The position numbers and the translations under genes are program-made. A DNA stretch of 64,000 nucleotides from Undaria pinnatifida (taxonomy: Eukaryota > Sar > Phaeophyceae > Laminariales > Alariaceae), in NCBI GenBank assembly GCA_012845835.1, contig JABAKD010000023.1:10519840-10583839 (forward strand), read 5' to 3'. The notes under the pieces were generated by a model that saw only the letters and a list, made by a program, of their open reading frames with translations, was not told where the DNA came from and did no database searches. Positions 9,132 to 64,000 of this stretch are shown here, piece by piece (position 1 is the first letter of the stretch; the number at the start of each line of letters is the position of its first letter).

Positions 9132-9383
9132 TGCTCTGCTTGATTCATACGGCAGCTTGCTGTTAATTCTCGTTTGTTTTCGGTCCACATCCTAGTTAAA
9201 CATTAACATGTCTGCTAATACACACCGTACTGCTGGCCCGTACTGCTGGCCCGTACTGCTAGCTCTACTGCTATACTCTGCCAGGCCGTCTCCTCGCAAT
9301 AGTTCGGTTTGCTTCCGTCCACCCAGCATAAAATCGCTTAATTCTCACCCCTCCCCTCCCCACTCCTCGCATTTTGTTATACT

Positions 9384-26869: not shown

Positions 26870-27113
26870 TTGGTTTTTCGGATCTTCCTAGGGCTCCAGC
26901 ACCTTTGTGTGACCACGGACTCTAGATGTTTGACAAGAGTTAATGTGAGAAAACAACAACAATAATTAAACCCGAACGATTCCAAACCGCAACTACATCA
27001 ATCACCACCAATTAAATAATTATTTTGGGGTGGTTGTAGAGTAAATGGTTCTTGGTTCATATGCCTTTATCAAGATAGATCGATTTCCGGAACGCAGAGC
27101 GATCAGGCAGAGA
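26870..27113. repeat. Fragments of dispersed repeats
   Basis: About 26906-26960 (GTGACCACGGACT, then GTTAATGTGAGAA and CAA repeats) matches 54383-54430. About 26963-26990 is the tail of the 840 bp repeat family in reverse orientation. 27026-27045 is an extra copy of that family's GGTGGTTGTAGAGTAAAT head. No gene was seen. Confidence 0.5.
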
Positions 27114-28384
27114 TGGTTGTAGAGTAAATCGAGAGTGTATAACGCCTTCCAGGTCCGAGAGGAATAATACCTGCGATGTAATAGGAAACCTTTTTTTTCC
27201 CATCACTTTAAAAGTATGCCCACCATGAATTTCTGGGAAAATTCTTGGAGGAAATTTCCGGCAACATTCTCGCATAACTGCTGTGACAGCAGAAATCAAT
27301 GCGCCTTCTTCGTAGATCGGGGTGTTGTGTCCTAAAAACTGGGGGACAGACGGCATTCGTCTTGTGTGTGAGCAGTCCTCGAGATGCATTTTGGAGTAGT
27401 GCCACCGTGTGCGCACGCACGTGCGCGCACCCTCGCAGAACTTCACCCGTGCTGCTGTCCGGCAGCCTTTCACACGTGGTTGCCATCTGCCGCTAGGACG
27501 CGGCTACGCACGATTGTAACTGTAACGGAAAACGCGAGACACATACTACATGATGAGTAAAACAAGGGCGGGCGTGTGGCGACACACACAACCGAAGACA
27601 AGAGCACGGATGTGTATGGCGACAAACGCGAAGAGACAGCAGCTGCAGCTGTAGTAATGTAGTAGTAGCCCACCACAAACAGCACAGCCGAGAGAGGGCC
27701 CTCCCGGCCTAGCTATGGTGGCGCAGCCGCATCTACCTCGTGTCCGTGCCCTGCAGGGCTGGGTGGTGATTGATGTAGAGCGTTTGGAGGGGGAGGTGAT
27801 ATCGTTGTGTAGGGCGGGTGGAGTGTGGGAGGCAATCAATGAAAACTGGCTTGCTGCTTGCAGGATTAAGGATCAACTTCAACCAAAAGGCCCCCCTCGC
27901 AAGATTTAGAACCCCCTGTGTTGCGTGTGGTGAAAAAACGAGTTTTAGAAGGAAATAACTCGAGTAGCATTTATTTGTTGTTCAACATTTTTAGTCTACT
28001 TCCTCACAATGGCGTCGCAGACAGGATGTGAGATTATGAACAGTGAGGTCGCTGGTTCGATTCTCACCGTCTTTCCCAGAAAAAAAAAAAAAAAAAAGGG
28101 ATTTTCTCTCGTTCAAGAACCTGTAAAACTCAACCACTTGAAAACAACGATGAGAGCAATGTATAGGATCATTGCAAGTCACTCCAATACCGAAAAAGTC
28201 GCATTGGATACTTGGTACCTCATCGGGCTTCCTGACATAATCTGGGAAATATGTCAGGTTTAGTGGGGGAGAATGTGGTGAAAAAACGAGTTTAGAAGGA
28301 AATAACTCGAGTAGCATTTGTTGTTCAACATTATTTTTTTTTAGTCTACTTCCTCACATGCGGTTTGGGATCGTTCGAGTTTAT
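27114..28384 (+). repeat. 840 bp repeat family, copy 1 (split by a miniature LTR element)
   Basis: The copy runs from the GGTTGTAGAGTAAAT head to the GGGATCGTTCGAGTTTA tail. It is split at 27925/28359 by an LTR insertion. Conserved interior marks include ACTGCTGTGACAGCAG, GTGCGCACGCACGTGCGCGC and a 60-odd-codon plus frame starting MVAQPHLPRVRALQGWVV. The minus frame with ECCRKFPPRIFPEI is also open in several copies. Neither frame matches a family I know. Confidence 0.75.
27926..28358 (+). mobile_element. Miniature LTR element (TRIM-like)
   Basis: Two ~84 bp terminal direct repeats (27926-28008 and 28274-28358) begin TGTGGTGAAAAAACG and end CTTCCTCACA. A TGGCGTCGCAGAC primer-site-like stretch starts at 28010. 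A purine tract (AGTGGGGGAGAA) abuts the second repeat. A 4 bp target duplication TGCG flanks it. The 265 bp interior has no recognisable protein. It contains a poly-A run and a B-box-like GGTTCGATTC at 28054-28063. It is non-autonomous, with near-matching repeats that suggest a young insertion. Confidence 0.75.
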
Positions 28385-28394
28385 CGAACAAAAA

Positions 28395-29241
28395 GGTGGT
28401 TGTAGGGTAAATCGAGAGTGAGTGTATAACGCCTTCCAGGTCCGATAGGAACAATGCCTGCAATGTAATTGGAATCTTTTTTTTTTTCATCACTATAGAA
28501 GTATGCCCACCACGAATTTCAGGGAAAATTCTTGGCGGAAATTTCCGGCAACATTCTTGCACAACTGCTGTGACAGCAGAAATAAATGCGCCTTCTTCGT
28601 AGATCGGGATGCTGTGTCCTAAAACTGGGGGACAGACGGCATGCATCTTGTGTGGGCAATCCTCGAGCTGCATTGGGCATTGAAGTAGTGTCACCGTGTG
28701 CGCACGCACATCATGCGCGCCCCCTCACAGAACTTCACCCGTGCTGCTGTTCGGCAGCCTTCCACACACACGTGGTTGCCATCTGCCGCTAGGACGCGGC
28801 AGCGCACGATTGTCACGGAAAATGCGAGACACATTAATATTCGTACATGATGAGTAAAACAAGGGCGGGCGTGTGGCGACACACACAACCGAAGACAAGA
28901 GCACGGATGTGTATGTCGACAAACGCGAAGACACAGCAGCAGCAGCAGCTGTAGTAGTAGTAGCCCACCACAGCACAGCCGAGAGAGGGCCTCCCCGGCC
29001 TAGCTATGGTCGCGCAGCCTCATCTACCTCGTGTCCGTGCCCTACAGGGCTGGGTGGTGGTTGATGGAGAGCGTTTGGTGGGGGAGGTGATATCGTTGTG
29101 TAGGGCGGGTGGGGTGGGTGAGGCAATCAATGAAAACTGGCTTGCTGCTTGCAGGATTAAGGATCAACTTCAACCAAGGAGCCCCCCTCGCAGGATATAC
29201 AACCCCCTAGGTGTATTGCGGTTTGGGATCGTTCGGGTTTA
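28395..29241 (+). repeat. 840 bp repeat family, copy 2
   Basis: Complete from head to tail, about 10 bp after the end of copy 1. It is more diverged than copies 1, 3 and 5, but all internal marks are present. Confidence 0.75.
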
Positions 29242-29323
29242 ATTGATTTTTTTTATTTTTTTTTTGATTATCCTCCGGCGGATGGGGAAAAATAAAGCTT
29301 TAGCTCACTAATTTGAATAATAG

Positions 29324-30143
29324 GGTGGTTGTAGAGTAAATCGAAAGTGTATAACGCCTTCCAGGTCCGAGAGGAATAATACCTGCGATGTAATAGGAAA
29401 CCTTTTTTTCCCATCACTATAGAAGTATGCCCACCATGAATTTCTGGGAAAATTCTTGGAGGAAATTTCCGGCAACATTCTCGCATAACTGCTGTGACAG
29501 CAGAAATCAATGCGCCTTCTTCGTAGATCGGGGTGTTGTGTCCTAAAAACTGGGGGACAGCCGGCATTCGTCTTGTGTGTGAGCAGTCCTCGAGATTCAT
29601 TTTGGAGTAGTGCCACCGTGTGCGCACGCACGTGCGCGTACCCTCACAGAACTTCACCCGTGCTGCTGTCCGGCAGCCTTTCGCACGTCGTTGCCATCTG
29701 CCGCTAGGACGCGGCTACGCACGATTGTAACGGAAAACGCGAGACACATACATGATGAGTAAAACAAGGGCGGGCGTGTGGCGACACACACAACCAAAGA
29801 CAACAGCACGGATGTGTATGGCGACAAACGCGAAGAAGACACAGCAGCTGCAGCTGTGGTAGTAGTAGCCCACCACAGCACAGCCGAGAGAGGGCCCTCC
29901 CGGCCTAGCTGTGGTGACGCGGCCGCATCTACCTCGTGTCCGTGCCCTACAGGGCTGGGTGGTGATTGATGTAGAGCGTTTGGAGGGGGAGGTGATATCG
30001 TTGTGTGGGGCGGGTGGGGTGTGGGAGGCAATCAATGAAAACTGGCTTGCTGCTTGCAGGATACGGGATCAACTTCAACCAAAGAGCCCCCCTCGCAAGA
30101 TTTACAACCCCTTGTGTTGCGGTTTGTGATCGTTCGAGTTTAG
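29324..30143 (+). repeat. 840 bp repeat family, copy 3
   Basis: Complete copy, very close to copies 1 and 5 by eye. It is separated from copy 2 by about 80 bp of A/T-rich sequence. Confidence 0.75.
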
Positions 30144-30164
30144 TTAAGCAGAAGTAGGAGTAGC

Positions 30165-30235
30165 ATGTATATACTATACAAGGGGCTACGCCGGCGGCCT
30201 GGACGGCCGCCGGTCGCAGCGCAGGATAGTAAATA
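30165..30235. repeat. GC-hairpin module
   Basis: CCGGCGGCC, loop TGGAC, GGCCGCCGG form a perfect 9 bp stem at about 30191-30213. TACAAGGGGCTACG lies on one side, so in reverse the module ends in CCCCTTGTA, like those at 13615-13910 and 55660-55705. Confidence 0.5.
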
Positions 30236-30454
30236 TTAAGAGGGTAAGAAGTAATGCCAAGAGTTAGACGAAGTTTGTTCATTCATATATGGGAGATACT
30301 GGAAAGGGAAAACGCCGACAAATTTTTCCCGATTTCCCGTGTGCGGCGGAACAATGCGAGAAGGCAGCCTGTAAATTATGGGAGAGCATGGCGGTTCACC
30401 CAGCTGGGTGACGCTCTGCGTTGCTACGCAGAAAGGCGCGGCCACAGCTGCTGC

Positions 30455-30840
30455 TGTGCATATACCTGCTGTGCATATACCATTTGTAGCTTCGTGATGC
30501 TGCTGTGCATATGCCATTTGTAGCTTCGTCATGCTGCAGGCTCATCATAGCTTCAGCTACTGCTGTACATCATGTACATGTACGTGCTGCTGATTTATAC
30601 GTGCTGCTGTAGACTACCGGGGGTTCAAAAATATTGAGAGTTCGCAGTTCTCCACGACGCCTAGCTGCTGCTGTGCATGTACCATTTGTAGCTTCGTGAT
30701 TCTGCTGTGCATATACCATTTGTAGCTTCGTGATGCTGCTGTGCATATACCATTTGTAGCTTCGTGATGCTGCAGGCTCATCATAGCTTCAGCTACTGCT
30801 GTACATCATGTACATGTATACGTGCTGCTGTAGACTTCGC
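30455..30840 (+). repeat. Tandem 32 bp repeats inside a duplicated block
   Basis: TGCTGTGCATATACCATTTG followed by TAGCTTCGTGATGC recurs with a ~32 bp period at 30459-30530 and 30665-30770. The adjoining block (CAGGCTCATCATAGC through CTGCTGTAGACT) is also present twice, at about 30538-30618 and 30773-30835. Confidence 0.7.
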
Positions 30841-30968
30841 AGTTCTCCACTACGCCTGGGTGGCATGTGTTCTCGGGGATTACGAACTTTTCTTCCCCAG
30901 ATCCTAGCACAAACCTCGCTTAGTGGCCTTTACAATGGCGACGCCGGCCAGGTAATTGACCCCCCCCC

Positions 30969-31229
30969 GTGTGTCGGAGGTCAGAGAACACGTACCGAAG
31001 AAATAACGCGAAGACATTAGCCCTGTGTGCAGACTACGCACCAAACGTCTCACAGGGCACGATTTTCGGAGATCTCGTCGTAGATCTCGACGTCGAGGCC
31101 TCGCGCGCGCGCTACGGCGCCGAGCGGGCGGATCAGCTGAGCCGGTGGTTGCAGGCGAGGCGGGGGCACGCCTCAGCGAAGAAACCGCGCGGAAAGGCGG
31201 TCAGAGGCGGGAGATATCCGCAGACGTAA
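30969..31229 (+). CDS. Exon-like ORF of unknown function
   Basis: An 86-codon frame whose second half (TIFGDLVVDLDVEASRARYG, then a basic tail) has a protein-like, high-GC composition unlike the surrounding repeats. GTGTGCAG just upstream of the coding-like part could be an acceptor, and CAGACGTAAGG at the end could be a donor. No family was recognised, and it could be a chance frame in a GC-rich patch between copies 3 and 4 of the 840 bp repeat. Confidence 0.25.
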   Translation: MCRRSENTYRRNNAKTLALCADYAPNVSQGTIFGDLVVDLDVEASRARYGAERADQLSRWLQARRGHASAKKPRGKAVRGGRYPQT

Positions 31230-31278
31230 GGATGTGCATATGTGATAAGCGAACTAAGATATATAGATTTATAGATAG

Positions 31279-32110
31279 GGTGGTAGTAGAGTAAATCGAG
31301 AGTGTATAACGCCTTCCAGGTCCGATAGGAACAATGCCTGCAATGTAATTGAAACCTTTTATTTCCATAACTTTGAAGGTATGCCCACCACGAATTTCTC
31401 AGAACATTCTTGGTGGAAATTTCCGGCAACATTCTTGCATAACTGCTGTGACAGCAGAAATCAATGCGCCTTCTTCGTAGATCGGGATGTTGTGCCCTAA
31501 ATACTGGGGGACAGACGGCATTCATCTTGTGTGGGCAATCCTCGAGATGCATTGGGCATTGGAGTAGTGTCACCGTGTGCGCACGCACGTGCGCGCCCCC
31601 TCACAGAACTTCACCCGTGCTGCTGTCCGGCAGCCTTTCACACGTGGTTGCCATCTGCCGCTAGGACGCGGCAGCGCACGATTGTAACGGAAAACGCGAG
31701 ACACATTAATATTCGTACATGATGAGTAAAACAAGGGCAGGCGTGTGGCGACACACACAACCATAGACAAGAAAAGCACGGATGTGTATGGCGACAAACG
31801 CGAAGACACAGCAGCAGCAGCTGTAGTAGTAGAAGCCCACCACAGCACAGCCGAGAGAGGGCCCTCCCGGCCTAGCTATGGTGGCGCAGCCTCATCTACC
31901 TCGTGTCCGTGCCCTACAGGGCTGGGTGGTGATTGATGGAGAGCGTTTGGAGGGGGAGGTGATATCGTTGTGTGGGGCCCGTGGGGTGGGTGAGGCAATC
32001 AATGAAAACTGGCTTGCTGCTTGCACGATGAAGGATCAACTTCAACCAAGGAGCGCCCCTCGCAGGATTTATAACCCCCTGTATTGCTGTTTGGGATCGT
32101 TCGGGTTTAG
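31279..32110 (+). repeat. 840 bp repeat family, copy 4
   Basis: Complete copy, sharing several variants with copy 2. It is followed after 8 bp by copy 5. Confidence 0.75.
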
Positions 32111-32118
32111 AAAATAAG

Positions 32119-35100
32119 GTGGTTGTAGAGTAAATTGGGGTGGTTGTAGAGTAAATCGAGAGTTTATAACGCCTTCCAGGTCCGATAGGAATAATGCCTG
32201 CGATGTAATAGGAAACCTTTTTTTTCCCATCACTATAAAAGTATGCCCACCATGAATTTCTGGGAAAATTCTTGGAGGAAATTTCCGGCAACATTCTCGC
32301 ATAACTGCTGTGACAGCAGAAATCAATGCGCCTTCTTCGTAGATCGGGGTGTTGTGTCCTAAAAACTGGGGGACAGACGGCATTCGTCTTGTGTGTGAGC
32401 AGTCCTCGAGATGCATTTTGGAGTAGTGCCACCGTGTGCGCACGCACGTGCGCGCACCCTCACAGAACTTCACCCGTGCTGCTGTCCGGCAGCCTTTCGC
32501 ACGTGGTTGCCATCTGCCGCTAGGACGCGGCTACGCACGATTGTAACGGAAAACGCGAGACACGTACATGATGAGTAAAACAAGGGCGGACGTGTGGCGA
32601 CACACACAACCGAAGACAAGAGCACGGATGTGTATGGCGACAAACGCGAAGAAGACACAGCAGCTGCATGCAGCTGCAGTAGTAGTAGCCCACCACAGCA
32701 CAGCCGAGAGAGGGCCCTGCCGGCCTAGCTGTGGTGGCGCAGCCGCATCTACCTCGTGTCCGTGCCCTACAGGGCTGGGTGGTGATTGATGTAGAGCGTT
32801 TGGAGGGGGAGGTGATATCGTTGTGTGGGGCGGGTGGGGTGTGGAAGGCAATCAATAAAAACTGGCTTGCTGCTTGCAGGATTAAGGATCAACTTCAACC
32901 AAAGAGCCCCCCTCGCAAGATTTAGAACCCCCTGTGCAGAATATTATCGAAGTATGAGAAAATATGGGTTTTGTACGTACGTAAGAAGTTTGACCAATCA
33001 GATCAATGCGGTAATTCATAGTCGTATGAGCGATAGCATTGGGCACACCTGGCCCAGCTGTGTAGGCGACGACCTGCACGCGGAGCGCGTAGGGGAGCAG
33101 AGTCAGAGCTTACAGGTCCAAGGTGTGATACAGACTAGTTAAGTTCTAGTTTAAGGCTAGTTTAAGTTCGTGCACTCCCCGACAATGGAGGAGTGCAAGT
33201 CACCGGAGGCTGAAGCTCTCGTGGCTGCTGCTGTACGCGGTCCTAGTCAGGCCGCCTCGGCTGCTGCTCGGTTCGAGGCTCATGCTGCTGTCGACACTGT
33301 GCAAGCTGGGGTCGACAAACGCCGTGCCGAAGCTCTGGCTGCTGTGCAAGCTGAGTCCGAAGGTCGCCGTGCCGCAGCCGCTTCGGCTGCTGCTACTGCT
33401 GCGTCTGCCACCGCGGCACCATCTTTGCTCAGCCCCAGTCCCGCTGTGTCCGAGGCTGCGGGGGTAATATAGGCTGAAGTGCTGCGCTGGCAAGGGCAGG
33501 TGTCTGGCGAGTTTGCTCGGATAGACGTAGAGGTGTTCCGCCTCAAGTCGACGATGGATCAACTGCTGGCCTCCTTTAAAACCCTGCTGGATGCGGTGGC
33601 TGGTGGCGCGTCTAAAACCGAGCACGTCGAGGCCATGCTCCAGCAGTTCATAGACATCTTTGCCGATCAGCAGCCGGCCCCGCGGGACAGTGGGGACGCG
33701 AGGGAGCGCCACGTCCAAATGTCGCAGTTAACTGACGACACTGCGCTATGGAAAAAGATGGCGTCCAGAAAACATTGGGTGCTCCGCGGGCGCATACCTC
33801 CCAACATTGGCGACTCGGCAGCGGATATCCAGTCCTTCGTAGGCGAGGCCGTCAACGTCACGACGGCAGATGCTACCCAGCTCGTCGCGATCAGTGACTT
33901 TGACATTCGTGCGTACGGGCCGCGCGCGGAAGGGATGGTCGAACACCTGCTGATGGCCGCTGACCGCCTCGATTTCTTGCGCCAGGCTCTTGTGGCGGTC
34001 CTGTCTGGTGGGTTTTCCCTCGGCAGCGACGGCGACCGCCATTGCCGGGAGAGGGTGGCAACGATCGATGCCGCCTTCACGACAGCGTCTGCCGACCTAC
34101 GCCGGCACACCCAAGCAAAACCGAGCAACCAGCAATATTATCCTGCTCTCTGGCTCCGCGGCGCGGGCTGTCATGAGCAAGATGGTAAACGACGATCTTC
34201 GTCTCCAACTGCAAATTCTTGCATTCGACTCCCCCGGCCGACGCCACTTCACCTGATGCTCTTCGCGACAGTGGCAGTTCGGCGGCGCCGGCTGGTGGGT
34301 CGCGGGCGTTGGTGCTGGGCTCAGAGCCCCGCGGTGGGTCCGGGGGTGGTAGTGGCGGCGCTGGTTCTGGATGAGGACACGGTCCCTTCCTGTCGGTTGG
34401 GCCAACACCTGGGGGGGCGGCTGCTGAGCTTGCCGTTGGTAGAGCGGTGAGGGCGCCGGGGGCCAGCGGGGAAGCGGGTGTCCGGCCGGCCACCCAAGGT
34501 GTAGGAGGGGGGCCGCGTGGGCGTGCGTTCGTAGCTTTGGCTGGCGATGGGGGTGTGGGGCGTGCTCGCGTGGCGGTGGCTCCGGGCTCGGTCCCCTTCG
34601 GCGAGAAAGGTACGTTTTTTTATGTGCGTGTGAGTGAGTTGCCGGCTGACTTGCTGCGTGTACAAGGGGCGTTTGATGGCGTACGTTCGGGTGCCTTGCG
34701 ATTCGTTGCGGTCGACCCTTGGTTGGATGCTCGGGCGGTTGTGATGCAGGCGATGGCCGAGCAAGGCTCCGCGAGCCTCGGTCATCTCGCCTCGGCAAAC
34801 TGCCCCCTCTTGAGACAGTGTCAGCGCCTTCGTCTCGTACATCCGCTTCAGCGAGGCAGGTGTCGCAGCTCGTTTGCTTCCTTATACATGTCTCCTTTGT
34901 TGTGCGTCCGGAGCGGTTTTTCGTGAACCGTTTGTTGGCTTCGGTGGGTATGCCGCGCATATCTGTCGGATCTGATTTCGGTTTTCAAGGCGCAGATGTT
35001 TCCCAAAAAGGGGTTGCTGCCGTCGCGCACGTCGGAATTCCCCGCCGCGGGGGGTTCCAGATGTCTCTATCCCGGGTGATTGTGGGCCTGTTTCTGGCTC

Positions 35101-38021
35101 TGGTGGCAACGCCGGGAACTACTTCTTTGTGAGGTATTACGTAGACGATGGCATTGTCGTCGAGTTGCAATGGTGGCCGGACGGTCGCCGTTGTTTGCGC
35201 GCTGTCCAGTCGCTGGCATTGAACATTTTCGCTTGTTGGGCGAACGTGGTGTCTCTGATCCGCCCCTCCTGTCCGCCAGAAAAATCACTGACTGGAACAC
35301 GCAACTGGAGGCGTTGGGTTGGATCATTGGCACGGAGGCGCTTACGGTTACGTTGCCGTCCCATAAGCGCCTCAAGCTGCAAATCTACTCGCGGAGTGGC
35401 CCTCGTCTCGTACAACTGCTTCAGCGAGGCAGGTGTCGCAGCTCGTTGGCTTCCTTATACATGTCTCCTTTGCTGTGCGTCCGGGGCGGTTTTTCGTGAA
35501 CCGTTTGTTGGCTTCGGTGGGTATGCCGCGCATATCTGCCGGAGCTGATTTGGTTGTGGTACGGCCAACATCGGGCAGCGCCTCGTCTTGGGACCCGAGT
35601 TTCAAGGGAACCTCGAGATTTGGCGATGGTTTATCGAGGAGGGATTGGACGCGCGCGGAAGAACCTTGTCGGCTCCGATGTATCATTTGCTTGAGCGCCC
35701 CTCCCAACGTACTCCGTTTTCGGGTGCATCCAAAACCGGTGTCGGCGGTTTCTGCCTTGAAACTGGGGTGTACTGGAGATACGATATTTACGCCGGGGAA
35801 CGATCTCGATTTTGCGGGTCGAGCAAGTAAGTTGCAGGCGAGACCGATATATCGATTAACGTCCTCGAACTGCTAGGTATGGTCGTCTCCCCGTGGGTCG
35901 TCGTATCTCCGTGCGCCGAGCGCCCGGCCGCGTTGGGGGACTGCGTGTTGTGGCGTGGCGACAACGAAGCAGCCGTAGAGTGGGTGCGGCGTTGTCGAGG
36001 CGGGAAGGAGCGGAGATCGGGCGCGTTGATGCGCCTCCTTGGTGTGCTTAAATTGTCCTCTGGTTGGCACTTCGACGCGAAACGCGTAGGGGGTATTTTT
36101 AACGTTGCTGCGGACGGTATCTCACGCTGGGATCGCGCTTCCGTCCTCGTTAATATGCGTGCTGTCCGTGGGATATGCTGCTCGCGCGCGAGAAGCTGAT
36201 ACCCCCGTGGCGTGCCGGGGGTCGTGTTTTGTGGCCGGCCCTGTGCGCTTCGTTCTGTCTCTTGACTCGCGCGTCCGAAATGTTCGCGGAAACCCGGTTA
36301 CGAGTTCACGAGACTTATTGTTTGCGGCGTGCTGATGTTGCATTTTTTTGCGGAAATATTCAGCTTACTGTTGCGCAGTGGTCAACCGCGGATCATGTCA
36401 AGGCTCAATTTCGCGGGTCGCAGGGTGACCAACCGCGGAAAGGGGCGGTTGTCACGCATGTGCGAAAGGGTCCGTCGATGCGCGTGGGGGAAGGTGGCGG
36501 CGCCGTCGATCTAATGATCGAATTGATGTCTTGTTACTTGTTTCCTCCCTCTTTGGCCCCCTTGGTTGCGTGTGTCGTTGGTAATGGCAGATGGTCCATG
36601 TGGACACAACATCAAGCGACTGTAGCTTTGCGGAAAGTGGTTGCGTTGGCGGGTGTGCGTGCGGAGGAGTACGCCTTGCACTCCCTGAGGATTGGAGGCG
36701 CAACGCACTTGTCGGCAGGGGGTGCAACACCGGTGGTGTTGCAGCGTGAGGGCCGATGGGCTCTGACTAGTTGGGCAAACGCGGAGTTACAAAGAAGTGT
36801 GTTATCTCGTGTGCACTCTACGACTCGAGGGTAGGGGGAAGCGGGGGGGGGTGGGACTACATTCGTAATACGGGTCAACTACCAGTTTGTGCTGGAGGCT
36901 GGCGTCGAGAGTTCGATGTCGCCAGTTGGGTTGGGAGTTGACTCGTGTATACGGATGTTAGCGTGGGGTTGCCGGCGGGGCAGCCCCGAGGTATTCCCAT
37001 CTCCAACCCCCCTCTCCGGGCGGGGGGTTGCGCATTAATATAATACAACTTCGAAAGCAAAGTGCAAAGCAGAATATTATCGAAGTAGGAGAAAATATGG
37101 GTTTTGTACGTACGTAAGAAGTTTGACCAATCAGATCAATGCGGTAATTCATAGTCGTATGAGCGATAGCATTGGGCACACCTGGCCCAGCTGTGTAGGC
37201 GACGACCTGCACGCGGAGCGCGTAGGGGAGCAGAGTCAGAGCTTACAGGTCCAAGGTGTGATACAGACTAGTTTAAGTTCCCACCCACCCGCCCGTGCTT
37301 TTGAGGGAGTCAGTGGAGGGGGAGTTAATCGGTCGCAGTAACGTTGCGCGTGTTTGTTACTGTTTTGGCAAACGTACTCGTTTTCGCTGAAGATGCGACG
37401 GGGTTTCGTAGATTGCGCAGGTTTGCGGTGGGTGCTAGCCGCATCAGTGTTATAGCGTGGTGCAAGAGGTGTTCGTTGTTGTGTTTTTTTTCAGCATGTG
37501 TTATATCTGAGTATCCCTCCGTGCGGTGGGGTTACGTATGACTGTTTTACGCAGATATTATGTTGATAGTTAAGAGCGAACGTTGTGGCAGTGCATCGGC
37601 TCGTATTTAGCGCGCAATCTGAAAGTGTGGGAGAGGGGAATTATCCGTATATTGGCAAGTAAGTGCATTTGTTTAATGTGCATGGTGTGTGCAGGCGTGC
37701 ATATTTTATAGCATATTTATTACACGCGTGTGTACGTTTTTTATATGCTGCACATTATAGGCGGTTGCCTCGTATGTCTTCTTCGAGTTGCCAACGATTG
37801 TTCGTCGTTGGTTGTTGGCTGGCGTCGAGAGTTCGATGTCGCCAGTTGGGTTGGGAGTTGACTCGTGTATACGGATGTTAGCGTGGGGTTGCCGGCGGGG
37901 CAGCCCCGGGGTATTCCCATCTCCAACCCCCCTCTCCGGGCGGGGGGTTGCGCATTAATATAATACAACTTCGAAAGCAAAGTAAGTGCAAAGTTGCGGT
38001 TTGGGATCGTTCGAGTTTAAT
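32119..38021 (+). repeat. 840 bp repeat family, copy 5 (split by the YR element)
   Basis: 32119-32936 is the body, with a doubled GGTGGTTGTAGAGTAAAT head. 37994-38021 is its tail (TTGCGGTTTGGGATCG). The 5.06 kb between is the YR retrotransposon. Joining the two flanks reproduces the uninterrupted sequence CCCTGTGTTGCGGTTTGGG seen, with small variants, in other copies. Confidence 0.8.
32937..37993 (+). mobile_element. Tyrosine-recombinase retrotransposon (DIRS order, Ngaro/PAT-like) fossil
   Basis: Terminal layout is of the split-direct-repeat kind: A1 (32937-33150), coding region, B1 (36896-37070), A2 (37071-37275), spacer, B2 (37819-37993). Parts in order: a gag-like Ala-rich and coiled region (about 33185-34100); a reverse-transcriptase region with YVDDG (about 35130-35400) preceded by a partial duplicate of the same ~577 bp segment (units at about 34947 and 35523); RNase H (about 35720-36150, FSGASKT, GDNEAAVEW, NVAAD); and a tyrosine recombinase (about 36175-36834, ending with LHSLRIGGATHLS). 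It has no target-site duplication, as expected for recombinase integration. It is broken at a few places. Repeat similarity suggests a recent age. Confidence 0.85.
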
Positions 38022-39490: not shown

Positions 39491-39763
39491 TCGTATGTAT
39501 ATTACAATCGCGCACATCCCCGTTTCCCTTCTAAATTTCGGAGGCGTCGCCTGCAGGATTTTGTTTACCGCTTGCGCAAACACACCAAAAACTCGGTGGG
39601 AAGGCAATTTACTTTTTTTAGCGGAAGGCAAGTAAATTTTTAGAAACGTATTTTCGCAAACACTCTATTTACAAAAAAAATCGAATTGCGTTTTTCCGTG
39701 ATGTTCGCTAATCTGAGCCAAGGGCCCGAATTTTGAACGAGGAACTTGCTACGTCGAGTTTTG

Positions 39764-40176
39764 CACTTTGCTTTCGAAGTTGTATTATATTAATGCGCAA
39801 CCCCCCGCACACTGATGCGGCTAGCACCCACCGCAAACCTGCGCAATCTACGAAACCCCGTCGCACATCTTGAGCGAAAACGGGTACGTTTACCTAAACA
39901 GTAACAAACACGCGCAACGTTACTGCGACCGATTAACTCCCCCTCCACTGACTCCCTCAAAAGCACGGGCGGGTGGGTGGGAACTTAAACTAGTCTGTAT
40001 CACACTGTGGACCTGTAAGCTCTGACTCTGCTCCCCTACGCGCTCCGCGTGCAGGTCGTCGCCTACACAGCTGGGCCAGGTGTGCCCAATGCTATCGCTT
40101 ATACGACTATGAATTACCGCATTGATCTGATTGGTCGAACTTCTTACGTACGTACAAAACCCATATTTTCTCATAA
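39764..40176 (-). mobile_element. YR-retrotransposon terminal remnant
   Basis: In reverse, this reads as the A2 end, the following spacer and the very end of B2 of the element at 32937-37993, with no internal genes. It is a shortened end-only remnant, comparable to a solo terminal repeat, in the opposite direction to the complete copy 2 kb away. Confidence 0.75.
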
Positions 40177-40504
40177 ATATATATAAGATCATTCCTTGAA
40201 TATCGAGTCATTCCTTGGTGTCATGTACTTTGGTCAGGAGTTACTTTCTCGGCCTAAGTATGCGATTCGCGGAACTGGAATTCTCGGTCGAATATGGCTT
40301 GGTTCGAGCGCCGCCTTTGGGGGGCGGCTCCAACGCCCCTCGCCCTGCCGTGTCCGTTCCGCACATCGACGTGAACGCGGACGGGTGCCGAGCGAGACGA
40401 GCGAGTGTTGAGGAGGAATTTCGGAAAAATTGTTGAATCTTAATGGCTGCAACGCCTGAATGATTTACAAAATTGGCATCATTTCCAAACGGTACGTGAT
40501 AATG
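40177..40504. other. No supported gene
   Basis: Contains a GC-rich, weakly palindromic patch (GGGGGGCGGCTCC) near 40320 and short unrelated open frames only. Confidence 0.4.
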
Positions 40505-47167: not shown

Positions 47168-48095
47168 GTAACAGAATTTCGAGACAAAACGAAGCAGGTA
47201 GAGCCGTCTCTGAGGACTTTGGCCCTGGCTTTAGCACGGCCGCTGACACTCCAGCCAGCCTCTGCTGTAGGCATGAACGAATGCAGTTGATTCGCAGAGA
47301 ACTATCCCGCTGTGCTCGCTTCTATGTGGCCATCGTCCACGCCATTTCATGTCACCTCCCTTCTGTTTTGAGCTCGTCGTCGTACGGTTGAGGTACGAGG
47401 AAACCCGTACGTACTCGGTGAGAACAGCAGTATGTACGACGAGCATGAACGCCATTTGACGACATTGGCAAGCACAAAACAGCAGGTGTAGCAGCAGTAG
47501 CCGAAGGGCGAAACGTCTAGCACATAATGCAGCAACTAGTAGCAACCAGAACTACAGCAGATAGCTCAAAGTGCAGTGCGAGTGCCGTTGGCAAGTTTAG
47601 TCGTACACGCATCACTCTGTCCCATATATATAACAGAATCTCGAGACAAAACGAAGCAGGTAGAGCCGTCTCTTCGGACTTTGGCCCTGGCTTTAGCACG
47701 GCCGCTGGCACTCCAGCCAGCCTCTGCTGTTGGCATGAACGAGTGCGGTTGATTCGCAGCGAACTATCCCGCTGTGCTCGCTCTTATGGGTCCATTGTCC
47801 ATGCCATTTCATGTCAACACCTCCCTTCTGTTTTGAGCTCGTCGTCGTACGGTTGAGGTACGAGGAAACCCGCACGTACTCGGTGAGAACAGCAGTATGT
47901 AAGACGAGCATGAACGCCAACTGACGACATTGGCAAACACACAACAGCAGGTGTAGCAGCAGTAGCCAAAGGGCGAAACGTCTAGCACATACTGCAGCAA
48001 CACATAGCAACCAGAACTACAGCAGATAGCTCAAAGTGCAGTGCGAGTGCTGTTCGTTGGCAAGTTTAGTCGTACACGCATCACTCTCAAGAGCC
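47168..48095. repeat. Two-copy tandem repeat, about 463 bp
   Basis: The block from ACAGAATTTCGAGACAAAAC to GTCGTACACGCATCACTC occurs twice, at about 47168-47630 and 47632-48095, with few differences. The minus frames starting MLLVAALCARRFALRLLLL and MLCVAAVCARRFALWLLLL are parallel in the two copies. They are not known proteins. Confidence 0.75.
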
Positions 48096-55659: not shown

Positions 55660-55707
55660 ATGGGCGCCGGCGAATGCCGGCGCCCATGCGGAGCCCTTGT
55701 ACTTCGA
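55660..55707. repeat. GC-hairpin module at the end of the YR element
   Basis: GCATGGGCGCCGGC, loop GAAT, and its exact reverse complement form a 14 bp stem at about 55659-55690. GGAGCCCTTGTA follows and runs straight into the shortened A2 end of the YR element. Confidence 0.7.
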
Positions 55708-57253
55708 TAATATTCTGCTTTGCACTTTGCTTTCGAAGTTGTATTATATTAATGCGCAACCCCCCGCCCGGAGAGGGGGGTTGGAGATGGGAATACCCCG
55801 GGGCTGCCCCGCCGGCAACCCCACGCTAACATCCGTATACACGAGTCAACTCCCAACCCAACTGGCGACATCGAACTCTCGACCCCAGCCTCCAGCACAA
55901 ACTGGTAGTTGACCCGTATTACAAATGTAGTCCCACCCCCCCCGCCCCCCCCTACCCTCGAGTCGTAGAGTGCACACGGGATAACACACTTCTTTGTAAT
56001 TTCGCGTTTGCCTAACTAGTCAACGCCCATCAGCCCTCACGCTGCAACACCGCCGGTGTTGCACCCTCTGCCGACAAGTGCGTTGCGCCTCCAATCCTCA
56101 GGGAGTGCAAGGCGTACTCCTCCGCACGCACACCCGCCAACGCAACCACTTTCCGCAAAGCTACCGTCGCTTGATGTTATGTCCACATGGATCATCTGCC
56201 ATTTCGAACGCCACACGCAACCAAGGGGGCCGAAGAGGGAAGGAACAAGTAACAAGACATCAATTCGGTCATTAGATCGACTGCGCCGCCACCTTCCCCC
56301 ACGCGCATCGACGGACCCTTTCGCACATGCGTGACAACTGCCCCTTTCCGCAGTTGGTCACCCTTCGACACGCGAAACCGAACCTCAACATGATCCGCGG
56401 TTGACCACTGCGCAACAGTAAGCTGAATATTTCCGCGAAAGAAGGCAACATCAGCACGCCGCAAACAATAAGTCTCGTGAACTCGTAACCGGGTTTCCGC
56501 GAACATTTCGGACGCGCGAGTCAAGAGACAGAACGAAGCGCACAGGGCCGGCCACAAAACACGACCCCCGGCACGCCACGGGGGGATCAGCTTCTCGCGC
56601 GCGAGCAGCATATCCCACAGACAGCACGCATATTAACGAGGACGGAAGCGCGATCCCAACGTGAGATACTGTCCGCAGCAACGTTAAAAATACCACCTAC
56701 GTGTTTCGCGTCAAAGTGCCAACCAGAGGACAATTTGAGCACACCAAGGGGGCGCATCAACGCGCCCGATCTCGGCTCCTTCCCGCCTCGACAACGCCGC
56801 ACCCACTCTACGGCTGCTTCGTTGTCGCCACGCCACAACACGCAGTCCCCCAACGCGGCCGGGCGCTCGGCGCACGGAGATACGACGACCCACGGGGAGA
56901 CGACCATACCTAGCAGTTCGAGGACGTTAATCGATATATCGGTCTCGCCTGCAACTGACTTGTTCGACCCGAAAAATCGAGATCGTTCCCCGGCGTCAAT
57001 ATCGCATCTCCAGTACACCCCAGTTTCAAGGCGGAAACCCCCGACACCGGTTTTGGATGCATCCGAAAACGGAGTACGTTGGGAGGGGCGCTCAAGCAAA
57101 TGATACATCGGAGCCGACAAGGTTCCTCCGCGCGCGTCCGATCCCTGCTCAATAAACCACCGCCGAAACTCGAGGTTCCCTTCAAACTCGGGTCCCAAGA
57201 CGAGGCGCCGCCCGAGGTTAGCCGTACGAAAACCAAAATCAGATCCGGCAGAT

Positions 57254-60200
57254 ATGCGCGGCATACCCACCGAAGCCAACACACGGTTCACGAAAAACCG
57301 CCCCGGACGCACAGCAAAGGAGACATGTATAAGGAAGCCAACGAGCTGCGACACCTGCCTCGCTGAAGCAGATGTACGAGACGAGGGCCACTCCGCAAGG
57401 AGATTTTTGCAGCTTGAGGCGCTTATGGGACGGCAACGTAACCGTAAGCGCCTCCGTGTCAATGATCCAACCCAACACCTCCAGTTGCGTGTCCCAGTCA
57501 GTGATTTTTCTGGCGGACAGGAGGGGCGGATCAGAGACACCACGTTCGCCCAACAAGCGAAAATAGTCCGATGCCAGCGACTGGACAGCGCACAAACAAC
57601 GGCGACCGTCCGGTCACCATTGCAACTCGACGACAATGCCATCGTCTACGAAATACCTCACAAAGAAGTAGTTCCCGGCGTTGCCACCGGAGCCAGAAAC
57701 AGGCCCACAATCACCCGGGATAGAGACAACTGGAACCCCCCTTGGCGGGGAAATTCCGACTTTCGCGACGGCAGCAGCCACTTTTTGGGAAACATCTGCG
57801 CCTTGAAAACCGAAATCAGATTCGGCAGATATGCGCGGCATACCCACCGAAGCCAACAAACGGTTCACGAAAAACCACCCCGGACGCACAGCAAAGGAGA
57901 CATGTATAAGGAAGCCAACGAGCTGCGACACCTGCCTCGCTGAAGCAGATGTACGAGACGAGGGCCACTCCGCAAGGAGATTTTTGCAGCTTGAGGCGCT
58001 TATGGGACGGCAACGTAACCGTAAGCGCCTCCGTGCCAATGATCCAACCCAACACCTCCAGTTGCGTGTCCCAGTCAGTGATTTTCCTGGCGGACAGGAG
58101 GGGCGGATCAGAGACACCACGTTCGCCCAACAAGCGGAAATGGTCCGATGCCAGCGACTAGACAGCGCACAAACAACGGCGACCGTCCGGCCACCATTGC
58201 AACTCGACGACAATGCCATCGTCTACGTAATACCTCACAAAGAAGTAGTTCCCGGCGTTGCCACCGGAGCCAGAAACAGGCCCACAATCACCCGGGATAG
58301 AGACAACTGGAACCCCCCGCGGCGGGGAAGTTCCGACGTACGCGACGGCAGCAGCCCCTTTTGTGGGAAACATCTGCGCCTTGAAAACCGAAATCAGATT
58401 CGGCAGATATGCGCGGCATACCCACCGAAGCCAACAAACGGTTCACGAAAAACCGCCCCGGACGCACAGCAAAGGAGACATGTATAAGGAAGCCAACGAG
58501 CTGCGACACCTGCCTCGCTGAAGCAGATGTACGAGACGAGGGCCACTCCGCAAGGAGATTTTTGCAGCTTGAGGCGCTTATGGGACGGCAACGAAACCGT
58601 AAGCGCCTCCGTGTCAATGATCCAACCCAACACCTCCAGTTGCGTGTCCCAGTCAGTGATTTTCCTGGCGGACAGGAGGGGCGGATCAGAGACACCACGT
58701 TCGCCCAGCAAGCGAAAATGGTCCGATGCCAGCGACTGGACAGCGCACAAACAACGGCGACCGTCCGGCCACCATTGCAACTCGACGACAACGCCATCGT
58801 CTACGTAATACCTCACAAAGAAGTAGTTCCCGGCGTTGCCACCAGAGCCAGAAACAGGCCCAAAATCACCCGGGATAGAGACAACTGGAACCCCCCGCGG
58901 CGGGGAAATTCCGACGTGCGCGACGGCAGCAGCCCCTTTTGTGGGAAACATCTGCGCCTTGAAGACCGAAACCAGATCCGGCAGATATGCGCGGCATACC
59001 CACCGAAGCCAACAAACGGTTCACGAAAAACCGCCCCGGACGCACAGCAAAGGAGATATGTATGAGGAAGCCAACGAGCTGCGACACCTGCCTCGCTGAA
59101 GCAGATGTACGAGACGAGGGCCACTCCGCAAGGAGATTTTTGCAGCTTGAGGCGCTTATGGGACGGCAATGCAACCGTAAGCGCCTCCGTGTCAATGATC
59201 CAACCCAACACCTCCAGTTGCGCGTCCCAGTCAGTGATTTTTCTGGCGGACAGGAGGGGCGGATCAGAGACACCACGTTCGCCGAACAAGCAAAAATGTT
59301 CCGATGCCAGCGACTGGACAGCGCACAAACAACGGCGACCGTCCGGCCACCATTGCAACTCGACGACAACGCCACCGTCTACGTAATACCTCACAAAGAA
59401 GTAGTTCCCGGCGTTGCCACCAGAGCCAGAAACAGGCCCACAATCACCCGGGATAGAGACAACTGGAACCCCCCGCGGCGGAGAAATTCCGACATGCGCG
59501 ACGGCAGCAGCCCCTTTTTGGGAAACATCTGCGCCTTGAAGACCGAAATCAGATCCGGCAGATATGCGCGGCATACCCACCGGAGCCAACAAACGGTTCA
59601 CGAAAAACCGCCCCGGACGCACAGCAAAGGAGATATGTATAAGGAAGCCAACGAGCTGCGACACCTGCCTCGCTGAAGCAGATGTACGAGACGAGGGCCA
59701 CTCCGCAAGGAGATTTTTGCAGCTTGAGGCGCTTATGGGACGGCGACGTAACCGTAAGAGCCTCCGTGCCGATGATCCAACCCAACACCTCCAGTTGCGC
59801 GTCCCAGTCAGTGATTGGTTTGGCGGACAGGAGGGGCGGATCAGAGACACCACGTTCGCCGAACAAGCGAAAATGGTCCGATGCCAGCGACTGGACAGCG
59901 CACAAACAACGGCGACCGTCCGGCCACCATTGCAACTCGACGACAACGCCATCGTCTACGTAATACCTCACAAAGAAGTAGTTCCCGGCGTTGTCACCAG
60001 AGCCAGAAACAGGCCCACAATCACCCGGTATAGAAGCACCTGAAAACCCCCGCGGCGGGGAAATTCCAACGTGCGCGACGGCAGCAGCCCCTTTTGTGGG
60101 AAACATCTGCGCCTTGAAAACCGAAATCAGATCCGGCAGATATGCGCGGCATACCCACCGAAGCCAACAAACGGTTCACGAAAAACCGCCCCGGACGCAC

Positions 60201-63200
60201 AGCAAAGGAGATATGTATGAGGAAGCCAACGAGCTGCGACACCTGCCTCGCTGAAGCAGATGTACGAGACGAGGGCCACTCCGCAAGGAGATTTTTGCAG
60301 CTTGAGGGGCTTATGGGACGGCAATGCAACCGTAAGCGCCTCCGTGTCAATGATCCAACCCAACACCTCCAGTTGCGTGTCCCAGTCAGTGATTTTTCTG
60401 GCGGACAGGAGGGGCGGATCAGAGACACCACGTTCGCCCAACAAGCGAACATGGTCCGATGCCAGCGACTAGACAGTGCGCAAACAACGGCGACCGTCCG
60501 GCCACCATTGCAACTCAACGCCAACGCCATCGTCTACGTTATACCTCCAAAGAATTAGTTCCCAGAGTTGCCACCAGAGCCAGAAACAGGCCCACAATCA
60601 CCCGGGATAGAGACAACTGGAACCCCCCGCGGCAGGGAAATTCCGACGTGCGCGACGGCAGCAGCCCCTTTTGTGGGAATCATCTGCGCCTTGAAAACCG
60701 AAATCAGATCCGGCAGATATGCGCGGCATACCCACCGAAGCCAACAAACGGTTCACGAAAAACCGCCCCGGACGCACAGCAAAGGAGACATGTATAAGGA
60801 AGCCAACGAGCTGCGACACCTGCCTCGCTGAAGCAGATGTACGAGACGAGGGCCACTCCGCAAGGAGATGTTTGCAGCTTGAGGCGCTTATGGGACGGCA
60901 ACGTAACCGTAAGCGCCTCCGTGCCAATGATCCAACCCAACACCTCCAGTTGCGTGTCCCAGTCAGTGATTTTTCTGGCGGACAGGAGGGGCGGATCAGA
61001 GACACCACGTTCGCCCAACAAGCGAAAATGGTCCGATGCCAGCGACTGGACAGCGCACAAACAACGGCGACCGTCCGGCCACCATTGCAACTCGACGACA
61101 ACGCCATCGTCAATTAAATACCTCAAAAAGAAGTAGTTCTCGGCTTTGCCACCAGAGCCAGAAACAGGCCCACAATCACCCGGGATAGAGACAACTGGAA
61201 CCCCCCGCGGCGGGGAAATTCCGACGTGCTCGACGGCAGCAGCCACTTTTTGGGAAACATCTGCGCCTTGAAAACCGAAATCAGATCCGGCAGATATGCG
61301 CGGCATACCCACCGAAGCCAACAAACGGTTCACGAAAAACCACCCCGGACGCACAGCAAAGGAGACATGTATAAGGAAGCCAACGAGCTGCGACACCTGC
61401 CTCGCTGAAGCAGATGTACGAGACGAGGGCCACTCTGCAAGGAGATTTTTGCAGCTTGAGGCGCTTATGGGACGGCGACGTAACCGTAAGAGCCTCCGTG
61501 CCAATGATCCAACCCAACACCTCCAGTTGCGCGTCCCAGTCAGTGATTTTCCTGGCGGACAGGAGGGGCGGATCAGAGACACCACGTTCGCCGAACAAGC
61601 AAAAATGGTCCGATGCCAGCGACTGGACAGCGCACAAACAACGGCGACCGTCCGGCCACCATTGCAACTGGACGACAACGCCATCGTCTACGTAATACCT
61701 CACAAAGAAGTAGTTCCCGGCGTTGCCACCGGAGCCAGAAACAGGCCCACAATCACCCGGGATAGAGACAACTGGAACCTCCCTTGGCGGGGAAATTCCG
61801 ACGTTCGCGACGGCAGCAGCCCCTTTTGTGGGAAACATCTGCGCCTTGAAAACCAAAATCAGATTCGGCAGATATGCGCGGCATACCCACCGAAGCCAAC
61901 AAACGGTTCACGAAAAACCGCCCCGGACGCACAGCAAAGGAGACATGTATAAGGAAGCCAACGAGCTGCGACACCTGCCTCGCTGAAGCAGATGTACGAG
62001 ACGAGGGCCACTCTGCAAGGAGATTTTTGCAGCTTGAGGCACTTATGGGACGGCGACGTAACCGTAAGAGCCTCCGTGCCAATGATCCAACCCAACACCT
62101 CCAGTTGCGTGTCCCAGTCAGTGATTTTCCTGGCGGACAGGAGGGGCGGATCAGAGACACCACGTTCGCCCAACAAGCGAAAATGGTCCGATGCCAGCGA
62201 CTTGACAGCGCACAAACAACGGCGACCGTCCGGCCACCATTGCAACTCGACGACAACGCCACCGTCTACGTAATACCCCACAAAGAAGTAGTTCCCGGCG
62301 TTGCCACCAGAGCCAGAAACAGGCCCACAATCACCCGGGATAGAGACAACTGGAACCCCCCGCGGCGGGGAAATTCCGACATGCGCGACGGCAGCAGCCC
62401 CTTTTTGGGAAACATCTGCGCCTTGANNNNNNNNNNNNNNNNNNNNNNNNNNNNNNNNNNNNNNNNNNNNNNNNNNNNNNNNNNNNNNNNNNNNNNNNNN
62501 NNNNNNNNNNNNNNNNNNNNNNNNNNNNNNNNNNNNNNNNNNNNNNNNNNNNNNNNNNNNNNNNNNNNNNNNNNNNNNNNNNNNNNNNNNNNNNNNNNNN
62601 NNNNNNNNNNNNNNNNNNNNNNNNNNNNNNNNNNNNNNNNNNNNNNNNNNNNNNNNNNNNNNNNNNNNNNNNNNNNNNNNNNNNNNNNNNNNNNNNNNNN
62701 NNNNNNNNNNNNNNNNNNNNNNNNNNNNNNNNNNNNNNNNNNNNNNNNNNNNNNNNNNNNNNNNNNNNNNNNNNNNNNNNNNNNNNNNNNNNNNNNNNNN
62801 NNNNNNNNNNNNNNNNNNNNNNNNNNNNNNNNNNNNNNNNNNNNNNNNNNNNNNNNNNNNNNNNNNNNNNNNNNNNNNNNNNNNNNNNNNNNNNNNNNNN
62901 NNNNNNNNNNNNNNNNNNNNNNNNNNTCACCCGGGATAGAGACAACTGGAACCCCCCGCGGCGGGGAAATTCCGACGTGCGCGACGGCAGCAGCCCCTTT
63001 TTTGGGAAACATACTGCGCCTTGAAGACCGAAATCAGATCCGGCAGATATGCGCGGCATACCCACCGAAGCCAACAAACGGTTCACGAAAAACCGCCCCG
63101 GACGCACAGCAAAGGAGACATGTATAAGGAAGCCAACGAGCTGCGACACCTGCCTCGCTGAAGCAGATGTACGAGACGAGGGCCACTCCGCAAGGAGATT

Positions 63201-64000
63201 TTTGCAGCTTGAGGCGCTTATGGGACGGCAACGTAACCGTAAGCGCCTCCGTGTCAATGATCCAACCCAACACCTCCAGTTGCGTGTCCCAGTCAGTGAT
63301 TTTTCCTGGCGGACAGGAGGGCGGATCAGAGACACCACGTTCGCCCAACAAGCGAAAATGGTCCGATGCCAGCGACTGGACAGCGCGCAAACAACGGCGA
63401 CCGTCCGGCCACCATTGCAAATCGACGACAACGCCATCGTCTACGTAATACCTCACAAAGAAGTAGTTCCCGGAGTTGCAACCAGGGCCAGAAATAGGCC
63501 CACAATCACCCGGGATAGAGACAACTGGAACCCCCGGCAGCGGGGAAATTCCGACGTGCGCGACGGCAGCAGCCCCATTTTTGGAAAACATCTGCGCCTT
63601 GAAAACCGAAATCAGATCCGGCAGATATGCGCGGCATACCCACCGAAGCCAACAAACGGTTCACGAAAAACCACCCCGGACGCACAGCAAAGGATACAAG
63701 TATACGGAAGCCAACAAGCTGCCACACCTGCCTCGCTGAAGCAGATGTACGAGACGAGCGCCACTCCGCAAGGAGATTTTTGCAGCTTGAGGCGCTTATG
63801 GGACGGCAACGTAACCGTAAGCGCCTCCGTGCCAATGATCCAACCCAACACCTCCAGTTGCGTGTCCCAGTCAGTGATTTTCCTGGCGGACAGGAGGGGC
63901 GGGATCAGAGACACCACGTTCGCCCAACAAGCGAAAATGGTCCGATGCCAGCGACTGGACAGCGCGCAAACAACGGCGACCGTCCGGCCACCATTGCAAC
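57254..64000 (-). repeat. Tandem array of a ~577 bp RT-derived unit
   Basis: The landmark GGCAGATATGCGCGGCAT recurs near 57254, 57831, 58409, 58987, 59564, 60142, 60719, 61296, 61874, 63049 and 63627, so the period is 577-578 bp. One further unit is expected in the gap. Each unit carries the YVDDG-encoding stretch and the connection toward RNase H. Units differ at scattered sites and look highly similar. The array reaches the window end. Confidence 0.9.
62427..62926. other. Assembly gap of 500 N
   Basis: Exactly 500 undetermined bases inside the tandem array. The round number suggests a default gap size, so the true array length is unknown. Confidence 0.98.

What the first reader, a model, noticed from the sequence alone, without database searches (positions are those of the whole stretch)
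57254..64000. Reverse-transcriptase segment turned into a satellite-like array
At least eleven head-to-tail copies of a ~577 bp segment of a YR-retrotransposon RT gene lie inside one element copy, and the array runs off the window. The other copy in this window (32937-37993) carries the same segment duplicated about twice. An internal RT fragment becoming a tandem satellite is unusual. It may reflect template switching during reverse transcription, or unequal exchange seeded by an ancestral two-unit state.
Basis: partly seen in the sequence, partly recalled or inferred. Interest (0 to 1): 0.75.

Follow-up and report, generated by a model that had tools for sequence, protein, structure and literature searches.

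The report
Tandem array inside a dead retrotransposon
A piece of a dead jumping gene's copying enzyme has been repeated head to tail about eleven times or more, a clear example of an already known way in which satellite DNA gets started, here in a little-studied class of jumping genes.

Summary
The array is real. On the minus strand, 57229-64000 holds 10 complete units (577 or 578 bp) and partial ones, interrupted by a 500-N gap (62427-62926) and running off the window. A relative, L001 (24% diverged), carries the segment once, inside an open 803-codon frame; there it is exactly 576 bp, phase 0 at both ends. The unit is thus the C-terminal half of the reverse transcriptase of a split-direct-repeat (Ngaro/PAT-type) tyrosine-recombinase element; the enzyme names rest on recalled motifs and weak profile hits. 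The second copy is not doubled: it keeps 1.26 units with the same junction point and lost the RT fingers. The tandem state is therefore older than the split of the two copies. Since then no coding constraint is seen: 11 of 11 visible copy-1 units share a one-base length gain, and unit differences fall evenly on codon positions. Units are mosaics of one another, which shows exchange among them. Gradual growth or one burst stays open, and so does whether the tandem state itself was mobile. Satellites from retrotransposon 3'UTRs and LINE ORF2 are in print, so this is a new member of a known kind.

The parts
57229..64000 (-). tandem array of the RT palm/thumb segment (copy 1); runs off the window; 10 complete units plus partial ones; contains a 500-N gap
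57229..57805 (-). last unit, 577 bp, joined without a break to RNase H
57806..62425 (-). eight contiguous complete units: 57806-58383, 58384-58961, 58962-59538, 59539-60116, 60117-60693, 60694-61270, 61271-61848, 61849-62425
   Evidence: unit start positions
62427..62926 (.). 500-N assembly gap inside the array
62927..63023 (-). partial unit (97 bp) on the far side of the gap
63024..63601 (-). complete unit (578 bp), the most diverged
63602..64000 (-). partial unit cut by the window end (399 bp)
56590..57228 (-). connection and RNase H region of copy 1 (part of a 352-codon open frame, 56590-57645)
56023..56632 (-). tyrosine recombinase region of copy 1, broken by stops
55724..55890 (-). B1 repeat of copy 1; followed by only 18 nt of A2, then unrelated DNA at about 55700
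32937..37993 (+). copy 2 of the element, inserted without target-site duplication in an ~810 bp repeat
32937..33146 (+). A1 repeat of copy 2 (pairs with A2, 37070-37280)
36897..37063 (+). B1 repeat of copy 2 (pairs with B2, 37817-37983)
34826..35555 (+). 1.26 units in copy 2: thumb fragment 34826-34985, then palm and thumb 34986-35555, with the same junction point as the array
33161..34825 (+). ORF1 frames (gag-like by position only) and start of the pol frame in copy 2; RT fingers (L001 from about 330-370 to 1499) missing after it
35831..36834 (+). RNase H end and tyrosine recombinase frames of copy 2 (two overlapping frames)

Best explanation
A YR retrotransposon of the split-direct-repeat (Ngaro/PAT) type suffered a tandem duplication of a 576 bp, 192-codon, in-phase piece of its RT gene, joined at about 4 nt of shared sequence (inferred with the help of relative L001). 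The two copies in the window both descend from that event, because they share the junction point (shown); most simply the ancestor was still mobile, by itself or with help (inferred; copy 2 is a clean insertion, but copy 1's own insertion ends are not seen). After that the elements were dead weight: in copy 1 a frame-breaking one-base length gain is in every visible unit, and the tandem pair grew at DNA level, by unequal exchange with conversion between units, to about 11 or more units; in copy 2 a deletion left 1.26 units. The array has no coding role (shown as lack of constraint); it is a short satellite-like array and a possible seed of a longer one (inferred).
For: Single-copy relative L001 with an open 803-codon frame; the segment is 576 bp there. 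Same junction point in 10 of 10 fully visible copy-1 junctions and in copy 2. Copy 2 sits precisely, without target-site duplication, in a repeat whose uninterrupted sister copies are in the window. 11 of 11 visible copy-1 units are one base longer than L001 at the same run; copy 2 is one shorter there. Differences among the 10 complete units fall evenly on codon positions (36/26/29, p = 0.42), as do copy 1 against copy 2 differences in RNase H (9/10/8, p = 0.89), while the distance to L001 is third-position biased (32/23/75 and 36/25/90). Units are mosaics: 189 of 378 site pairs fail the four-gamete test, linkage falls with distance more strongly than in all 2000 permutations, 5 of 45 unit pairs share blocks of three or more minor alleles, one pair 7 units apart; 0 of 1200 simulations without exchange gave 28 or more informative sites with half of the pairs in conflict.
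Against: Neighbouring units are not more alike (Mantel r = -0.20, p = 0.81, 8 of the 9 contiguous complete units), which plain local unequal crossing over would predict. Unit-unit difference (4.25%) is about that between the two copies (4.39% in the flank, 4.89% unit to unit; ratio within/copy 2 0.82, 0.63-1.09, and within/flank 0.88, 0.64-1.25, without the most diverged unit), so much of the array may be as old as the split of the copies. At 9 sites copy 2 shares the non-L001 base with only some copy-1 units (4 of the 9 with two or more units on each side), against 2 sites fixed as derived in copy 1. Taken alone, the fall of linkage with distance was matched in 18-25% of star-tree simulations and 0.7% of coalescent ones. 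Copy 1's insertion ends are not seen, so a DNA-level duplication of part of an element is not excluded. The RT name rests on recalled motifs and a weak Pfam hit (E = 0.33 on L001:670-1380, none on L001:670-1659); the fold prediction failed.
Confidence: 0.65

Rival explanations
1. One burst: strand slippage or template switching during one reverse transcription (or rolling-circle copying) made most units at once, and copy 1 came to its place with its array already long; later changes and conversion gave the present differences.
For: Poorly resolved tree, no likeness of neighbours, unit divergence about as old as the split of the copies, short shared sequence at the junction.
Against: 28 informative sites among the 10 units, more than a star tree gives in simulation (medians 4 and 9); but conversion after a burst can also spread variants, and conversion can also erase neighbour likeness.
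Confidence: 0.2
2. The array is an assembly artefact.
For: A 500-N gap lies in it; single changes cluster in some units.
Against: All 10 complete units differ (45 pairs, least 1.9%); the same junction point occurs in a second copy elsewhere in the window.
Confidence: 0.04
3. An unrelated satellite was captured by, or lies beside, the element.
For: The 5' side of the array is not in the window.
Against: The unit is colinear with the RT gene of L001 and runs into RNase H at the expected place.
Confidence: 0.02
4. The duplicated palm-thumb piece is or was of use to the element, since the first duplication kept the frame open.
For: 576 bp in L001, phase 0 at both ends, in-frame junction; the junction is older than the split of the copies.
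Against: One in three duplications keeps frame by chance; each visible copy-1 unit is now off frame at the same run and without constraint.
Confidence: 0.04

Closest known systems
Ogre LTR-retrotransposon internal arrays that became satellites (Lathyrus sativus, PMC7004042, passages read; Macas 2009 only as cited there)
   Same: Short tandem array inside a retrotransposon, dispersed with it, some in elements that lack pol (two of its nine satellites); arrays may expand at some loci.
   Different: There the units lie in the 3'UTR of LTR elements; here in the RT gene of a YR element. Expansion outside the element could not be tested here.
Satellites from LINE-1 ORF2 (PROsat of Phodopus, Pvc20 of Phoca vitulina) and from partial CR1 ORF2 (HinfI, chicken), as given in the review PMC9659126 (passages read)
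   Same: A piece of a reading frame of a LINE became a tandem repeat.
   Different: LINEs, named satellites; here the array is still embedded and short, and the element is of the YR class.
Ngaro elements (Cafeteria, PMC8547959, passages read; 15 families in Ectocarpus, PMC12477816, passages read)
   Same: A1-ORFs-B1A2B2 layout, YR gene, isolated AB repeats (PMC8547959).
   Different: No tandem RT segment is told in the passages that I saw.

Membership tests
Split-direct-repeat YR retrotransposon (Ngaro/PAT type) | A1-[ORFs]-B1A2B2 layout | tested here: met
   copy 2: A1 32937/A2 37070, B1 36897/B2 37817, 99%; layout as in PMC8547959
Split-direct-repeat YR retrotransposon (Ngaro/PAT type) | insertion without target-site duplication (recalled as a trait of YR elements) | tested here: met
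   copy 2 only, against sister copies of the ~810 bp repeat; copy 1 not testable
Split-direct-repeat YR retrotransposon (Ngaro/PAT type) | tyrosine recombinase gene | tested here: inconclusive
   L001 394-codon frame: PHROG integrase E 0.0026; Phage_integrase E 0.07-0.15 and XerD E 0.31, below cut-off; copy 2 frame Phage_integrase E 0.14; HxxR and Tyr motifs recalled
Split-direct-repeat YR retrotransposon (Ngaro/PAT type) | RT and RNase H | tested here: inconclusive
   RVT_1 E 0.33 on one L001 piece, none on a longer one; RNase H piece hit only Peptidase_A17 E 0.004 and DUF6256 E 0.078, both below cut-off; YVDD, FGW and RNase H residues recalled and located; fold prediction useless, pLDDT 28.6
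Split-direct-repeat YR retrotransposon (Ngaro/PAT type) | place in a Ngaro or PAT clade of an RT/YR tree | not tested
   no reference sequences on hand
Satellite DNA | head-to-tail array of one unit | tested here: met
Satellite DNA | exchange or concerted evolution among units | tested here: met
   mosaic units, shared length gain in 11 of 11 visible units; but weakly homogenised: 4.25% mean difference, neighbours not more alike
Satellite DNA | long arrays, at many loci, outside the element | not testable with these tools
   no whole genome is held

The most novel reading that the evidence does not exclude
This family of YR elements moved around the genome while carrying a multi-unit, in-frame tandem RT segment, so that the array itself was the mobile thing: a transposon that plants ready-made satellite seeds taken from its own enzyme gene.
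Probability: 0.12. Interest if true: 0.6.

Novelty: new member of a known kind. Interest (0 to 1): 0.33.

Why it matters
It shows, with an unduplicated relative for comparison, an early stage of satellite birth from a coding piece of a YR retrotransposon: first junction, its presence in two copies, loss of coding, exchange among units. With long reads one could ask whether array length grades between copies, hence whether growth is by reverse transcription or by DNA exchange; [quoted passage not shown]

Tried and rejected
Profile searches on window and L001 frames gave little: Pfam 10 window frames, one weak hit; L001, PHROGs and NCBIfam weak hits only. PDB sequence searches of L001: only unrelated chance hits. 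AlphaFold of L001 with one relative: mean pLDDT 28.6, so no fold search was made. Viral contigs: 6 of 8 scans used; no relative, and two phage contigs matched a motif by chance (L002, L003). 343 genomes of the order of the MAG, searched with L001: only L001 itself. tRNA and Rfam: none. My first reading, that the unit holds a decayed FGW motif, was wrong: L001 shows that motif upstream of the unit. Unit tree: unresolved; the copy-1 units against copy 2 have 66% support. A second alignment with lower gap costs left the divergence figures unchanged, so mismatches from two compensating indels in the unit 63024-63601 still inflate its distance and add to the variable sites; one search leaves that unit out of the ratios. 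The host was not identified; an alga of the brown-alga kind is a guess, not a result.

Full report
OBSERVATION. The minus strand of 57229-64000 is a head-to-tail array. BLAST of one unit against the window finds it end to end; unit starts lie 577 or 578 bp apart, except 598 across the gap. There are 10 complete units, a 97 bp and a 399 bp partial one, and a 500-N gap (62427-62926). Tandem Repeats Finder did not list it; its longest period is 500. The 45 pairs of complete units differ by 1.9-6.9%, mean 4.25%; none are identical, which speaks against a simple assembly duplication. The number of units is a lower bound.

WHAT THE UNIT IS. One scan of the genome contigs with the 352-aa frame at 56590-57645 brought a single relative, L001, a 3,704 bp contig in a Rickettsiales MAG, probably host DNA by its content (inference). 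L001 has an 803-codon frame open at its 5' end and an overlapping 394-codon frame. Its matches in the window run colinear with both element copies from the RT segment through RNase H to the recombinase and the B repeat, and it has no internal repeat by BLAST. The unit corresponds to L001 1084-1659, exactly 576 bp, 192 codons, phase 0 at both ends. It begins after the FGW-type motif (nt 1000), holds YVDD (nt 1237) and the region that leads to RNase H. These motif names, and 'fingers', 'palm' and 'thumb', are recalled; the profile support is weak (RVT_1 E 0.33 on one piece and nothing on a longer piece).

THE ELEMENT. Copy 2 (32937 to about 37993) has A1-ORFs-B1A2-B2 repeats, the layout given for Ngaro in PMC8547959. 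It sits in the last of five ~810 bp repeats; sister copies show the uninterrupted sequence, with no target-site duplication. Copy 1 matches the element only up to 18 nt into its A2 repeat, at about 55700, and its other end is beyond the window, so its own insertion is not seen. Copy 2 holds L001-like sequence up to about L001 332, then some 40 nt that do not clearly match, then jumps to L001 1500: the RT fingers are missing and what follows is a thumb fragment and one whole palm-thumb piece, 1.26 units.

HISTORY. The end of one unit meets the start of the next at the same point in 10 of 10 fully visible places of copy 1 and in copy 2; over 24 nt, 6 of the 10 are identical to copy 2 and the others differ by one or two substitutions. 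So the junction is older than the split of the copies. That both were then inserted by transposition is the simplest reading, but it is shown for copy 2 only; a DNA-level duplication of part of an element is not excluded for copy 1. At the junction the two parent sequences (read from copy 1 at the last unit and from L001 at the first) share TTTC, so the duplication may be by microhomology or template switching (inference; L001 is 24% diverged). Against L001, 11 of 11 visible copy-1 units are one base longer at the same A-run, and copy 2 one base shorter; 5 of the 10 complete units are one base longer still. Differences among units fall on codon positions 36/26/29 (p = 0.42) and those between the copies in RNase H 9/10/8 (p = 0.89), while the distance to L001 is 32/23/75 and 36/25/90. 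So the lineage was under selection before, and no constraint is seen among the units or between the copies since.

EXCHANGE. Of 378 pairs of informative sites among the 10 complete units, 189 fail the four-gamete test; an earlier count on all 13 whole and partial pieces gave 154 of 378. Linkage falls with distance, r = -0.20, stronger than in all 2000 permutations. Five of 45 unit pairs share three or more minor alleles in a run, one of them 7 units apart. In 1200 simulations without exchange (300 for each of four settings) none had 28 or more informative sites with half of the pairs in conflict; single measures do occur there: the fall of linkage in 18-25% of star trees and 0.7% of coalescent trees, and half of the pairs in conflict in 29-36% of star trees, which however had few sites (medians 4 and 9). 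I take exchange as shown on the joint result. Its pace is not: neighbours are no more alike than distant units (Mantel r = -0.20, p = 0.81, 8 of the 9 contiguous complete units), and mean unit divergence is 0.82 (0.63-1.09) of that to copy 2 and 0.88 (0.64-1.25) of that of the flank, without the unit 63024-63601. Two sites fixed as derived in copy 1, plus the shared length gain, favour growth after the split; 9 sites where copy 2 shares the non-L001 base with only part of the units (4 of them, 118, 348, 413 and 507 in the unit, with two or more units on each side) speak for an older set of units, for conversion or for repeated change.

KNOWN OR NEW. PMC7004042 (passages read) reports satellites that began as arrays in the 3'UTR of Ogre elements and leaves the first mechanism open. 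PMC9659126 (passages read) lists satellites from LINE-1 ORF2 and partial CR1 ORF2. I found no report of an RT-segment array in a YR element in the nine searches; they cover only open-licence papers, searches listed 15 of 42 and 20 of 41 papers, and apart from the four papers named in Closest known systems I saw titles and starts of abstracts only. PMC12477816 (passages read) lists 15 Ngaro and 5 PAT-like families in Ectocarpus. I call it a new member of a known kind.

On rereading I saw that copy 1's insertion ends are not in view.

Noticed in passing
27111-32936: Five direct copies of an ~810 bp repeat, 87-96% alike, unknown kind; copy 2 of the element is inserted in the last.
   Followed up: partly
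39760-40175 (-): Isolated A-B repeat of the same YR element; isolated AB repeats are reported for Ngaro in Cafeteria.
   Followed up: partly
55690-55720 and 40150-40180: Copy 1 ends 18 nt into A2, within a base or two of where the isolated A-B repeat begins; in copy 1 a hairpin with perfect 14 bp arms, GCATGGGCGCCGGC-ATTC-GCCGGCGCCCATGC, follows.
   Followed up: no
37040-37100: Inverted arms ACTTCGA and TCGAAGT flank the B1|A2 junction, a possible recombinase core site (seen by eye).
   Followed up: no
L001 1-3704: A eukaryote-type YR retrotransposon contig is binned in a Rickettsiales MAG (JALZUV010000302.1), probably contamination from the host.
   Followed up: partly
3171-4076 (-): DDE_Tnp_4 transposase frame (E 1.4e-34).
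   Followed up: no
7641-9134 and 25232-26820: A 1.5-1.6 kb inverted pair, 88% alike, each with its own internal repeats.
   Followed up: no
47169-48087: A 465 bp segment in two tandem copies, 93% alike.
   Followed up: no
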